Shown here in pieces: positions 156 to 12,392 of a stretch of DNA of 12,392 nt. The notes below the pieces were generated by a model. The model did not search any database and was not told the origin of the DNA. It worked only from the letters and a program-made list of their open reading frames with translations. The DNA comes from Clostridia bacterium (lineage in GTDB: Bacteria; Bacillota_A; Clostridia; Oscillospirales; CAG-272), in the NCBI GenBank assembly GCA_017632155.1, contig JAGBRZ010000147.1, positions 1 through 12,392 of the forward strand, in the 5' to 3' direction. How positions within the stretch are numbered: position 1 is the first letter of the stretch; every line of letters starts with the position of its first letter. The position numbers and the translations under genes are program-made.

Positions 156-241
156 ATTTGCCGCAGGCAAATACACCATCATTCTCGCGAAGCGAGATCA
201 TCATTCTGCCGAAGGCAGATTATCATTCGCGCGAAGCGCGA
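156..241. repeat. Tandem 22-bp hairpin array, spacer nnATCAT
   Basis: Three hairpins repeat with an exact 22-bp period: TCTCGC-GAA-GCGAGA at 183-197, TCTGCC-GAA-GGCAGA at 205-219 and TCGCGC-GAA-GCGCGA at 227-241. Each is preceded by a 7-base spacer ending in ATCAT (CCATCAT, TCATCAT, TTATCAT). A related hairpin, ATTTGCC-GCA-GGCAAAT, lies at 156-172. Spacer, triloop and the outer TC...GA pairs are constant. The inner stem changes on both arms together, so pairing is kept while sequence is not. The array ends 17 bases before the start codon of the flavin reductase gene, so it may be part of its 5' leader. A second array with another spacer lies at 5668-5756. Confidence 0.85.
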
Positions 242-5414: not shown

Positions 5415-5491
5415 GCGCCGTTAGCTCAGCCGGATAGAGTGTTTGGCTACGAACCAAAAGGCCGGGGGTTCGAGTCCCTCACGGCGCGCCA
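5415..5491 (+). tRNA. tRNA-Arg (anticodon ACG)
   Basis: A 77-base cloverleaf. The acceptor GCGCCGT pairs with ACGGCGC, followed by discriminator G and encoded CCA. The anticodon stem TTTGG/CCAAA encloses loop CTACGAA, giving anticodon ACG (read as inosine-CG after editing), so it decodes CGN arginine codons. The T-arm is GGGGG-TTCGAGT-CCCTC at 5464-5480. It has its own promoter and terminator and is a single-gene unit. Confidence 0.96.
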
Positions 5492-5529: not shown

Positions 5530-5546
5530 GCCACCCCGTTCGATAA

Positions 5547-5653
5547 CTCGGAACCCCGATGTGGTTTCGCAGGCGAAACCACATCACTGTTCGCGCTATT
5601 GCCAAATAAAATTATCACGCCCAATTATGCGCGAACTGGGGGTTCAGAGTCCC
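5547..5653 (+). ncRNA. Folded post-tRNA element, copy A (tRNA-T-arm copy at 3' end)
   Basis: A compact foldable element of unknown kind. An outer stem GAACCCC (5551-5557) pairs with GGGGTTC (5639-5645); a further CTC/GAG (5547-5549 with 5647-5649) follows across one mismatch. Inside are a 12-bp hairpin (5558-5569 with 5574-5585, loop CAGG) and a second stem GTTCGCGC/GCGCGAAC (5589-5596 with 5629-5636), whose loop ends in CCCAATTAT. The 3' end, GGGGGTTC-A-GAGTCCC (5638-5653), copies the upstream tRNA-Arg T-arm (5464-5478) with one extra A, 174 bases downstream. The same architecture, with different stems, follows tRNA-Pro at 12145-12241. Whether it acts as RNA, as folded DNA, or only as the scar of a mobile element cannot be told here. 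Confidence 0.6.
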
Positions 5654-5656
5654 GGA

Positions 5657-5756
5657 CGAAATATTTCGCACTCGCTCCGTTCGGGTGCACTTAACTCACG
5701 GCAACGCCGTGACCTTAACTCCGCCGAAGGTGGATCTTAACTCGCGCCCCGCGCGA
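5657..5756. repeat. Second tandem hairpin array, spacer nCTTAAC
   Basis: After a 12-base palindrome CGAAATATTTCG (5657-5668) and a 7-bp hairpin (5668-5674 with 5682-5688) come three short hairpins: TCACGGC-AAC-GCCGTGA (5696-5712), TCCGCC-GAA-GGTGGA (5720-5734, one G-T pair) and TCGCGC-CCC-GCGCGA (5742-5756). Each is preceded by a 7-base spacer ending CTTAAC (ACTTAAC, CCTTAAC, TCTTAAC), giving periods of 24 and 22 bp. The outer TC...GA pairs are constant, as in the array at 183-241, but the spacer differs. No gene is visible between 5530 and 5809. Confidence 0.8.
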
Positions 5757-10834: not shown

Positions 10835-11812
10835 TCAGTCTTTTTTCTTTCCGCTATTGTTCGACTTCACGCTGATAACAACGGCAACAACAAGGATTCC
10901 GATGGCAACGATCATAAATATCGCGCTGCCCGAAATGCCGCGCGATGCGCGCTGCGGGGTGGGGAAGACGTTTTCGATATAGTCAACGCAGATGACGGTG
11001 CGGATGCCCGTCGCCTCTGTGAAGGACTCGAGCGCGGCATTGACCGTTGCGGCTGTCAGCTGCGGCTCTCCCGAACCCGTCAGGTCAACAAGCTTCGATT
11101 CGTTCGGCTGCGTTGCCTTGCTCGGCTCGACGTTGAAGGACGAGGAAAGCCCCTCCGCAACGATCACCTTTTCCATCTCTCCCATCAGCGACGCGAGGTT
11201 GGCATCGAGCGAGTAGGCGTAGTAATTCGCCACGTGCGAGCTGACGAGCTGACCGAGCGTGGTGTAATTGTTGCCGAAATGCTCGGAAACTTCGTAGGCA
11301 ATGTTGTCGCCGACCCACGCAATGAAGTAAATGTCCTCGCATTCCTCTTCGACGAGGAAGTAGAGCAGAATGTTGTCCTCGTAGGTCGCGCCGTGGTCGA
11401 AGAACTGCGAATATTTCGCATCGGCGGCGCGCTGAAACGCGGCTTCGTTGTAATTTTGACCGAAATCATCGGGGTGAACCTTCACGTTGTTCGTGGGCAG
11501 AAGCATATAAATTAACGCAAAGGCAAAGAATATAATGATGATCACGGGCGCCATCATCGCGCCAAGGCATCCCCCACCGCCACCGCCGTAATAACGGCGC
11601 GGACCGAATCCCCAACCAAAATAGGGACCGTGATGGTGATGGTGATGATGCGGGTGATGATGGGGAGTTCCAAAGCCTCCGGGACGCGGACCACCAAAGC
11701 TGCCGCCGGGGCGCGAACCGCCACCGAAGCCTCCGCCGCCAAATCCTCCTCCGCGGGAGCCGCCTCCAAAGCCGCCACCGCCACCTCTTGAACCTCCACC
11801 GGGACCGGGCAT
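10835..11812 (-). CDS. Gly/His-rich two-helix membrane protein with TPM-like external domain
   Basis: A 325-residue protein with four parts. Residues 1-50 are almost only Gly, Ser, Arg, Phe and Pro. Residues 51-61 are ten His and one Pro, a possible metal-binding tract. A first transmembrane helix spans about 86-105. A soluble domain of about 190 residues includes YEDNILLYFLVEEECEDIYFIAW and faintly resembles TPM-type extracytoplasmic domains. A second helix spans about 297-316, followed by a Lys-rich end. With both ends carrying positive charge, the middle domain probably faces outward. AGG stands eight bases from the ATG at 11812, and a clear promoter is at 11852-11880. The TPM likeness is weak. 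The function is unknown; metal handling is a guess from the His tract. Confidence 0.75.
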   Translation of the reverse strand: MPGPGGGSRGGGGGFGGGSRGGGFGGGGFGGGSRPGGSFGGPRPGGFGTPHHHPHHHHHHHGPYFGWGFGPRRYYGGGGGGCLGAMMAPVIIIIFFAFALIYMLLPTNNVKVHPDDFGQNYNEAAFQRAADAKYSQFFDHGATYEDNILLYFLVEEECEDIYFIAWVGDNIAYEVSEHFGNNYTTLGQLVSSHVANYYAYSLDANLASLMGEMEKVIVAEGLSSSFNVEPSKATQPNESKLVDLTGSGEPQLTAATVNAALESFTEATGIRTVICVDYIENVFPTPQRASRGISGSAIFMIVAIGILVVAVVISVKSNNSGKKKD

Positions 11813-12014: not shown

Positions 12015-12091
12015 CGAGATGTGGCTCAGTTTGGTAGAGCGCTACGTTCGGGACGTAGAAGTCGCAGGTTCGAATCCTGTCATCTCGACCA
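12015..12091 (+). tRNA. tRNA-Pro (anticodon CGG)
   Basis: A 77-base cloverleaf. The acceptor CGAGATG pairs with CATCTCG, followed by discriminator A and encoded CCA. The anticodon stem CTACG/CGTAG encloses loop TTCGGGA, giving anticodon CGG, which reads CCG. C1-G72 and G37 fit proline tRNAs. The T-arm is GCAGG-TTCGAAT-CCTGT. Its 3' end from the T-loop onward is the start of a 168-bp tandem repeat. Confidence 0.96.
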
Positions 12092-12126
12092 AAATAGGGG
12101 ATAGCCTTCAGGCTATCCCCTATTTT
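12091..12126 (+). terminator. Rho-independent terminator of tRNA-Pro (repeat unit 1)
   Basis: A perfect 16-bp stem (12091-12106 with 12111-12126) with loop TTCA begins at the last base of the CCA and closes with TTTT. It is copied exactly in unit 2. Confidence 0.88.
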
Positions 12127-12144
12127 GCTTGAACTGAATTGATG

Positions 12145-12241
12145 CTGAACCTCTTGGTGTCGCGAAGCGGCACCAATCATTTGCGCGCGAGCACTGCATA
12201 TCGCTCTCGCACCCAATTATGCGCGCAAATATAGGTTCAGA
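12145..12241 (+). ncRNA. Folded post-tRNA element, copy B
   Basis: The same layout as the element after tRNA-Arg. The outer stem CTGAACCT (12145-12152) pairs with AGGTTCAG (12233-12240). A ten-bp hairpin (12154-12163 with 12167-12176, loop GAA, one G-T pair) is followed by TC and the stem ATTTGCGCGC/GCGCGCAAAT (12179-12188 with 12221-12230). The loop of this last stem ends in CCCAATTAT, and the 14 bases CCCAATTATGCGCG are identical to copy A. The outer stem's 3' arm copies the tRNA-Pro T-arm (AGGTTC), so its 5' arm is also complementary to the tRNA gene itself. A second copy of this element begins at 12313 and is cut off by the window end. Confidence 0.65.
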
Positions 12242-12259
12242 ATCCTGTCATCTCGACCA
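12233..12259 (+). pseudogene. Duplicated tRNA-Pro 3' end (T-arm to CCA)
   Basis: This copies the tRNA-Pro 3' end (12066-12091), beginning AGGTTC and ending in the acceptor strand CATCTCG, A, CCA. One A is inserted in the T-loop (TTCAGAAT in place of TTCGAAT). There is no 5' half, so it cannot be a tRNA by itself. Confidence 0.92.
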
Positions 12260-12294
12260 AAATAGGGGATAGCCTTCAGGCTATCCCCTATTTT
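12259..12294 (+). terminator. Duplicated terminator hairpin (repeat unit 2)
   Basis: An exact copy of the tRNA-Pro terminator 168 bases downstream. It would act only on transcripts that read through the first one. Confidence 0.85.
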
Positions 12295-12392
12295 GCTTGA
12301 ACTGAATTGATGCTGAACCTCTTGGTGTCGCAAAGCGGCACCAATCATTTGCGCGCGAGCACTGCATATCGCTCTCGCACCCAATTATGCGC

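What the first reader, a model, noticed from the sequence alone, without database searches (positions are those of the whole stretch)
12073..12392. 168-bp tandem repeat built from a tRNA 3' tail, its terminator and a folded non-coding element
The repeat boundary falls inside the tRNA-Pro T-loop, and each unit regenerates the tRNA 3' end, CCA and terminator. Crossover in the T-loop with identity to the end of the tRNA gene is known for tyrosine integrases, but here the unit carries no gene and recurs in direct tandem with one difference in 152 bases. It could be a minimal mobile element that stacks in tRNA genes, a tandem attachment-site array used by an integrase elsewhere, or a recombination-driven satellite. 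I know of no named class that fits.
Basis: partly seen in the sequence, partly recalled or inferred. Interest (0 to 1): 0.88.

Follow-up and report, generated by a model that had tools for sequence, protein, structure and literature searches.

The report
tRNA-linked repeat array in gut Clostridia
Behind many tRNA genes of some uncultured gut bacteria lies a small folded non-coding DNA element that ends in a copy of that same tRNA's tail; it resembles the little-understood "tRNA-linked repeats" of E. coli, and here its ends follow the sequence of the tRNA it sits behind.

Summary
The 168-bp tandem repeat is real: two units, one difference in 153 bases, junction between tRNA-Pro positions 56 and 57, second unit cut by the contig end. 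It is one of a family. The window's other tRNA (Arg) carries a single element at 5545-5657. A covariance model found 12-26 copies in each of four related ruminant-gut Clostridia genomes, behind 20 tRNA species, 49-66 nt past the tRNA end in 35 of 37 loci. Each copy is a hairpin pair closed by an anti-T-arm and a T-arm copy, running into its own tRNA's tail (311 of 333 positions; permuted mean 219.5, highest 245). Similar arrays lie inside long contigs of relatives, so an assembly artefact is unlikely. A named class fits: the tRNA-linked repeats (TLRs, Rfam RtT) of E. coli; K-12 lysQ and lysV show the same order of parts. These elements do not match RtT, so they are a separate, TLR-like family. 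A genuine integrase island at the same tRNA in a relative has another boundary. Function is unknown, and RNA-level selection is only weakly indicated. Most novel: interiors are shared between some tRNA genes while arms and tail match the local tRNA.

The parts
12015..12091 (+). tRNA-Pro(CGG) gene; its tail from position 57 to CCA (12072-12091) is the start of the repeat unit
   Evidence: ARAGORN; Rfam RF00005 68.5 bits
12072..12239 (+). repeat unit 1 (168 bp): tRNA tail, terminator, anti-T-arm, folded interior, T-arm copy AGGTTC plus one extra A
12092..12126 (+). intrinsic terminator of tRNA-Pro (15-bp stem, T run)
   Evidence: fold; letters
12141..12153 (+). anti-T-arm GATGCTGAACCTC, left arm of the closing stem, complementary to the T-arm
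12154..12176 (+). hairpin 1 (10-bp stem; compensatory changes among relatives)
12179..12230 (+). hairpin 2, stem ATTTGCGCGC/GCGCGCAAAT with a 32-nt loop that ends in the conserved CCCAATTAT
12233..12259 (+). copy of the tRNA-Pro T-arm and tail: AGGTTC, one extra A, then 20 of 20 nt of position 57 to CCA
12240..12392 (+). repeat unit 2, cut by the end of the contig after 153 of 168 nt
5415..5491 (+). tRNA-Arg(ACG), the other tRNA gene of the window
5545..5657 (+). second element of the same family, single copy, behind tRNA-Arg: anti-arm, hairpin 1, hairpin 2 with CCCAATTATGCGCG, T-arm copy GGGGTTCAGAGTCCC
   Evidence: model R1, 81.1 bits, (this copy was among the 11 the model was built from); pattern; 77% identical to the orthologous element of G004

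Best explanation
It is a tRNA-linked repeat (TLR-like element) of a family that I found only in a group of gut Clostridia. Shown: behind the terminator of many tRNA genes sits a folded element of mostly 95-145 nt whose closing stem pairs an anti-T-arm with a T-arm copy, and which runs into a copy of that tRNA's own tail. Shown: interiors tend to group by tRNA across genomes and are sometimes alike between different tRNAs, while arms and tail match the local tRNA. Inferred: the window's tandem array arose by unequal exchange or slippage between the direct repeats (T-arm to CCA, 26 nt plus one extra base) that flank each unit; this makes near-identical units and can add or remove them. Inferred: arms stay matched to the gene either because the tRNA gene acts as template in gene conversion, or because the fold is selected. 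[quoted passage not shown] coli, and works as a folded RNA.
For: Family: same anatomy at both tRNA genes of the window; 69 matches in four genomes. I used 68; one antisense match to an element already counted was dropped. Of these 68, 48 lie within 420 nt downstream of a same-strand tRNA, 13 are too near the edge of the stretch to tell, 7 have none. 37 distinct loci, 20 tRNA species. Own-tail match 311/333 (permuted mean 219.5, sd 6.8, highest of 3000: 245); anti-arm 225/259 (193.8, sd 3.6, highest 208). Fold: on 11 copies 94.9% of cells paired, 30 cells with changes on both sides (shuffled mean 9.0), slid controls 28-47% paired; 63 of 66 copies fold with the closing stem, 62 of 66 with two or more hairpins inside. 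Interior nearest neighbour has the same tRNA in 18 of 47 (permuted mean 2.0, highest 11), the same genome in 14 of 47 (mean 14.2). E. coli K-12: own tail repeated downstream in 11 of 37 tRNA genes in eight stretches, foreign-tail control 1 of 370; lysQ and lysV show tail, terminator, 13-nt anti-T-arm, interior, tail, terminator.
Against: No Rfam RtT match for the window or 18 related loci at gathering threshold, nor at E up to 1 for seven loci and the window end. The tail copy often stops near position 65, short of CCA, unlike the 18-19 bp of E. coli TLRs; the window's own tRNA-Arg element is such a case. RNA-level selection is weak: G-U against A-C cells are 29 to 40 over all stem columns, 23 to 13 after I dropped two badly aligned columns, against 55 to 1 in tRNA stems. 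The minus strand folds better in 48 of 66. The family looks narrow: 8 of 59 genomes, G001 included; 2 of 295 in the order, G001 included. The strict filters of those two searches miss diverged copies (one was seen in G009). No transcription data.
Confidence: 0.7

Rival explanations
1. Neutral palindromic satellite. Template switching and gene conversion at the tRNA gene and its terminator keep rewriting complementary arms from the tRNA gene, which selection holds constant. No function is needed; the arms match because the gene is the template.
For: Stems are almost strictly Watson-Crick with no clear G-U excess over A-C (tRNA control). Two loci show long inverted copies: tail-terminator-anti-tail at tRNA-Gln L100, and nearly the whole tRNA-Met inverted with mismatches at L102.
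Against: The 32-nt loop of hairpin 2 keeps conserved letters across the 11 aligned copies though it is not part of the stems. Own-tRNA complementarity beyond the T-arm is not general: tail and trailer pair with -19.9 own against -15.6 permuted, but the acceptor strand alone gives no excess, -3.83 against -3.69.
Confidence: 0.25
2. Minimal integrative element. A gene-less cassette carrying a tRNA tail and terminator is inserted at the T-loop by a tyrosine recombinase made elsewhere, restoring the tRNA and pushing the old tail and terminator downstream.
For: Distal tails followed by a different terminator at Lys L047, Asn L049, Ser L056, Ala L053 and Lys L064. Unlike proximal terminators at the tRNA-Pro gene of window and G004. 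In G006 a Trp-type element with the Trp tail sits behind tRNA-Gln (L080), and another lies with no tRNA in the 249 nt left before the contig end (L082).
Against: At L080 the Gln tail is proximal and the Trp tail distal, the reverse of T-loop integration. TLRs follow 5S genes in E. coli. No match in phages or plasmids, pattern not in viral contigs. The displaced tRNA-Pro fragment that goes with an integrase island in G002 starts at the anticodon.
Confidence: 0.12
3. Cis-acting RNA switch. In read-through transcripts the anti-T-arm invades the tRNA and spoils its fold unless the T-arm copy captures it.
For: Predicted acceptor stem kept in 33 of 37 tRNAs alone, 6 of 37 with the trailer up to the anti-arm, 25 of 37 with the last part of that trailer shuffled; T-stem 24, 7 and 21 of 37.
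Against: Adding the whole element restores the acceptor stem in only 10 of 37 and the T-stem in 17 of 37. Minimum-energy folds ignore co-transcriptional folding and modification, and the terminator comes first.
Confidence: 0.12
4. Assembly artefact: a single unit duplicated by the assembler.
For: The window ends inside unit 2, and element matches crowd contig ends.
Against: Tandem arrays inside longer contigs of relatives, non-identical tandem units at the tRNA-Pro gene of G003, and one difference between the two units here.
Confidence: 0.03

Closest known systems
tRNA-linked repeats (TLRs) of E. coli, including the 178-bp tyrT/tyrV repeats
   Same: Directly behind a tRNA gene; end in a copy of that gene's 3' end; occur singly or in tandem. 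At lysQ and lysV also terminator, 13-nt anti-T-arm and repeated terminator in the same order.
   Different: Different interior, no match to the RtT model; tail copy in Clostridia often ends near position 65; one or two extra bases in the copied T-loop; found behind 20 tRNA species in four genomes.
Rfam RtT RNA (RF00391)
   Same: The covariance-model family of the E. coli elements; 4 hits in the tyrT/tyrV stretch and 6 in 49 kb of other K-12 tRNA regions.
   Different: No RtT match in the window or in the related loci tested.
Tyrosine-integrase islands in tRNA genes
   Same: Restore a tRNA 3' end and leave a displaced copy of it.
   Different: The G002 island next to tRNA-Pro(CGG) carries an integrase (PF00589) and AbiH; its likely displaced fragment starts at the anticodon. 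The unit here has no gene and starts in the T-arm.
MITEs / REP-type palindromes
   Same: Short, gene-less, inverted-repeat ends, many copies.
   Different: Ends are not fixed but follow the neighbouring tRNA, and position and orientation are fixed relative to it in the loci with a tRNA.

Membership tests
tRNA-linked repeats (TLR) | located immediately downstream of a tRNA or rRNA gene, same strand | tested here: met
   Both window elements; 48 of 68 matches within 420 nt of a tRNA, 13 undecidable at edges, 7 without a tRNA
tRNA-linked repeats (TLR) | 18-19 bp at its 3' end identical to the 3' end of the upstream gene | tested here: met
   tRNA-Pro unit 1: 20 of 20 nt. Not met by the tRNA-Arg element of the window, whose copy stops after GAGTCCC. 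A 14-nt test with up to 2 mismatches is met by 9 of 38 tRNA genes of G003, so many members of the family fall short
tRNA-linked repeats (TLR) | transcribed by read-through and processed (shown for rrA/rrB/rrF only) | not testable with these tools
   No expression data. Reported for rrA/rrB/rrF of E. coli (PMC8144298)
Rfam RtT (RF00391) | score above the gathering threshold | tested here: not met
   not listed at E up to 1
Tyrosine-integrase element | encodes or sits next to an integrase | tested here: not met
   No integrase among the ten window proteins scanned; only mechanical ORFs overlap the unit; the sequence beyond the contig end is unknown
Tyrosine-integrase element | recombination at the T-loop leaves the host's own tail distal | tested here: inconclusive
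   Distal tails with other terminators fit; the G006 Gln locus shows the opposite order
MITE | constant terminal inverted repeats shared by all copies | tested here: not met
   Arms vary with the local tRNA
MITE | target-site duplication and a matching transposase in the genome | not tested
   -

The most novel reading that the evidence does not exclude
A tRNA-addressed cassette: a folded interior that passes from one tRNA gene to another and on arrival has both of its arms and its tail rewritten from the resident tRNA gene, so that each copy carries the address of its host. The same principle would have arisen in Clostridia and in Enterobacteria with unrelated interiors.
Probability: 0.3. Interest if true: 0.8.

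Novelty: new variant of a known kind. Interest (0 to 1): 0.6.

Why it matters
TLRs have been known in E. coli for over forty years with almost no function assigned. A second family in Clostridia, with an interior that does not match RtT, behind 20 tRNA species and with arms that follow the local tRNA, gives a comparative data set. It makes open questions directly testable: what keeps the arms matched, whether the fold acts as RNA or DNA, and whether tRNA genes breed such repeats repeatedly. It also gives one reason why assemblies of these genomes break at tRNA genes.

Tried and rejected
Chance: rejected by a near-perfect 153-nt repeat and by shuffles. Protein-coding unit: only mechanical ORFs overlap the repeat. 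Phage, plasmid or viral origin: no match (with the pattern only). Known Rfam family: in the window only tRNA reaches gathering. Near related loci Fusobacteriales-1 (L031) and Gut-1 (L010) do, beside the elements and not over them. Matches at E up to 1 below gathering include BSR1073 over the window array (E 0.0004, 23.8 bits, threshold 241), which I take as chance.

Extended palindrome: in the window the tRNA-Pro tail, terminator and trailer form an imperfect inverted repeat, and I first thought this general. Own against permuted pairing gives no excess for the acceptor strand.

RNA or DNA fold: the first G-U/A-C count (29 to 40) looked like evidence against RNA. It included two badly aligned columns; without them it is 23 to 13 (summed by hand). 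I call this inconclusive.

Fast evolution of the element: window against G004 at tRNA-Arg, the element is 77% identical, the downstream spacer 93%, the terminator stretch 96%, but the upstream spacer is 77% too, so the rate alone says little.

Empty site: of 12 loci with the 192-aa gene that flanks tRNA-Arg in the window, ten show no tRNA in the stretch fetched and two (G003, G004) show tRNA-Arg with an element. No clean empty site was found.

Order-wide search: almost none outside close relatives. Interior-free scan of two distant genomes: 0 of 59. Paper searches that gave nothing useful.

Full report
WHAT IS THERE. The window ends in a tRNA-Pro(CGG) gene (12015-12091) followed by a 168-bp tandem repeat. 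Unit 1 runs from tRNA position 57 (12072) to 12239. Unit 2 starts at 12240 and is cut after 153 nt by the end of the contig; the two differ at 1 of 153 positions. Unit 1 holds the tRNA tail with CCA, a terminator, a 13-nt stretch complementary to the T-arm (anti-T-arm), two hairpins, and a T-arm copy AGGTTC with one extra A. Its non-coding part folds with z = -6.0 against shuffles.

IT IS A FAMILY. The window's other tRNA, Arg(ACG) at 5415-5491, carries a single element with the same anatomy at 5545-5657. A scan of genome contigs for a pattern common to both gave 8 loci. Seven are from "Clostridia bacterium" MAGs of goat, yak and cattle gut, from four assemblies. The eighth (Muribaculaceae) has no tRNA in the locus and lies, as I judge from reading it, in a coding sequence, so I take it as chance. 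From 11 copies I built a covariance model. It found 14, 17, 26 and 12 matches in the four genomes G001-G004. I worked with 68 of the 69 and dropped one antisense match to an element already counted.

POSITION. Of the 68, 48 lie within 420 nt downstream of a same-strand tRNA, 13 are too close to the edge of the stretch to judge, and 7 have no tRNA there. The 48 stand for 37 distinct loci and 20 tRNA species. The distance from tRNA end to the first element is 49-66 nt in 35 of 37, 93 and 98 in the other two. The four genomes hold 27, 31, 42 and 33 tRNA matches, so at least 37 of 133. tRNA genes of G003 where I saw no element include the Val-Asp-Phe-Gly clusters, Glu, Cys, Gln(TTG) and Tyr; for some of these the contig ends soon after the gene.

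ARMS AND TAIL FOLLOW THE LOCAL tRNA. Over the 37 loci, the nine positions 57-65 of the local tRNA recur behind the element's GTTC at 311 of 333 positions. Permuting tRNAs gives a mean of 219.5 (sd 6.8) and at most 245 in 3000 trials. The anti-arm gives 225 of 259 against 193.8 (sd 3.6), at most 208. An earlier count on 46 elements, tandem copies included, agrees (389 of 414 against at most 302 in 5000). Pairing energy between trailer and own tail is -19.9 against -15.6 permuted; the acceptor strand alone shows no excess.

THE FOLD. On the 11-copy alignment 94.9% of cells pair, 10 of 25 pairs have changes on both sides (shuffled mean 6.1; 2 of 500 shuffles as high), and sliding the partner by 1-3 columns drops pairing to 28-47%. 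63 of 66 copies fold freely with the closing stem (two copies under 95 nt left out). The orthologous tRNA-Arg element of the closest relative (G004; flanking proteins 90-91% identical) is 77% identical while the downstream spacer is 93% and the terminator stretch 96%; the upstream spacer is 77% too. Whether the fold acts as RNA is open: G-U to A-C is 29 to 40 or 23 to 13 without two bad columns, against 55 to 1 in tRNA stems; the minus strand folds better in 48 of 66.

HISTORY. Interiors group by tRNA: nearest neighbour at the same tRNA in 18 of 47 (permuted mean 2.0, highest 11), in the same genome in 14 of 47, as expected by chance. Yet G003 Lys and Ser interiors are 81% alike, and G003 Leu(GAG) and Pro(TGG) 84%, each with its own arms and tail (its output was cut in the middle). 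In G006 a Trp-type element with the Trp tail stands behind tRNA-Gln, and another has no tRNA in the 249 nt left before the contig end. At tRNA-Pro(CGG), G003 has three unlike elements, the third decayed, the first behind a terminator like the window's. G004 has another terminator and only the left part of an element. In G002 a truncated tRNA-Pro is followed by what is, by eye, the element that is second in G003. The intact G002 gene borders an island with an integrase and AbiH; that the two contigs are the two ends of one island is inference.

NOT LIKELY AN ARTEFACT. 23 of 68 matches lie within 500 nt of a contig end against 4.5 expected, but arrays of 3.6 x 152 bp and 2.8 x 129 bp lie inside contigs of 73 and 47 kb in two other genomes, G020 and G015.

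THE KNOWN CLASS. PMC8144298 (abstract, passages and the first part of the Discussion seen) describes tRNA-linked repeats: 22 in E. coli K-12 at ten loci, their last 18-19 bp identical to the 3' end of the upstream tRNA or rRNA. It says that they had no known function, and shows that the three behind 5S genes are transcribed by terminator read-through and bind Hfq and CsrA. Passages of PMC2965389 and PMC4986893 link the rtT transcript and the RtT family to tRNA operons. I fetched eight K-12 stretches. RtT hits: 4 at tyrT/tyrV, 6 in 49 kb elsewhere. Own tails recur behind 11 of 37 tRNA genes, foreign-tail control 1 of 370. lysQ and lysV show the order of the window: tail, terminator, 13-nt anti-T-arm, interior, tail, same terminator. 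The Clostridial elements do not match RtT. I therefore call them TLR-like, not RtT. I did not find the tracking of arms described in the listings and passages seen; the library lacks most subscription journals, and the original TLR papers were not read.

RANGE. 8 of 59 genomes drawn as relatives of G001, itself included, have matches, and 2 of 295 in the order, G001 included; both searches used strict filters. An interior-free scan (14-nt own tail, up to 2 mismatches) found repeats in 9 of 38 tRNA genes of G003, 1 of 21 of G005/G009 and 0 of 59 of G044/G058, with foreign-tail controls of 1 of 380, 0 of 210 and 1 of 590. For the last two pairs only 30 loci each were fetched, of 45 and 102 tRNA matches. 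In the same call G001, G002 and G004 gave 2 of 6, 2 of 8 and 3 of 8, but their loci had been fetched because they hold elements; of the window's two tRNAs, one. The hit in G009 (L161) is an element of the same shape that the model search missed.

MECHANISM. Best supported: array growth by unequal exchange or slippage between the T-arm-to-CCA direct repeats. How arms stay matched (rewriting from the tRNA gene or selection on the fold) is open. A switch acting on the tRNA is possible: predicted acceptor stems survive in 33 of 37 tRNAs alone, 6 of 37 with the trailer, 25 of 37 with the last part of the trailer shuffled. The whole element restores only 10 of 37.

Noticed in passing
window 177-238; L001 behind the tRNA-Thr array; L086, L092, L093, L094, L096, L099, L103 behind tRNA terminators: Arrays of short hairpins (ATCAT-type spacers with short GC stems) follow several tRNA genes that lack the element; one such stretch (L010 1411-1493) just passes the Rfam model Gut-1 (RF01706, 51.6 bits, threshold 50).
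   Followed up: no
L102 (G001:C26, contig end): tRNA-Met(CAT) followed by its terminator and a nearly complete inverted copy of the tRNA with mismatches.
   Followed up: no
L087 (G003:C2): tRNA-Asn with an unrelated multi-hairpin interior of roughly 200 nt flanked by a 12-nt anti-T-arm and T-arm, then a full Asn tail and a second terminator: same frame, other filling.
   Followed up: no
L012, L022, L077: Elements without a recognisable tRNA at the usual distance but with a shared upstream motif around CATCAYCGCCAAGGGATA in three genomes; possibly a decayed tRNA or an unknown RNA gene (no Rfam match there).
   Followed up: partly
L126 and L125 (G002:C1, C114): Tyrosine integrase and AbiH genes behind tRNA-Pro(CGG); Fic and restriction-type helicase genes next to the displaced tRNA fragment.
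   Followed up: partly
L104 (G001:C66): Three antisense T-arm-like stretches in a row behind tRNA-Gln(TTG).
   Followed up: no
window 10835-11812: 325-aa glycine-rich protein without a Pfam match, next to tRNA-Pro also in G003 and G004.
   Followed up: no
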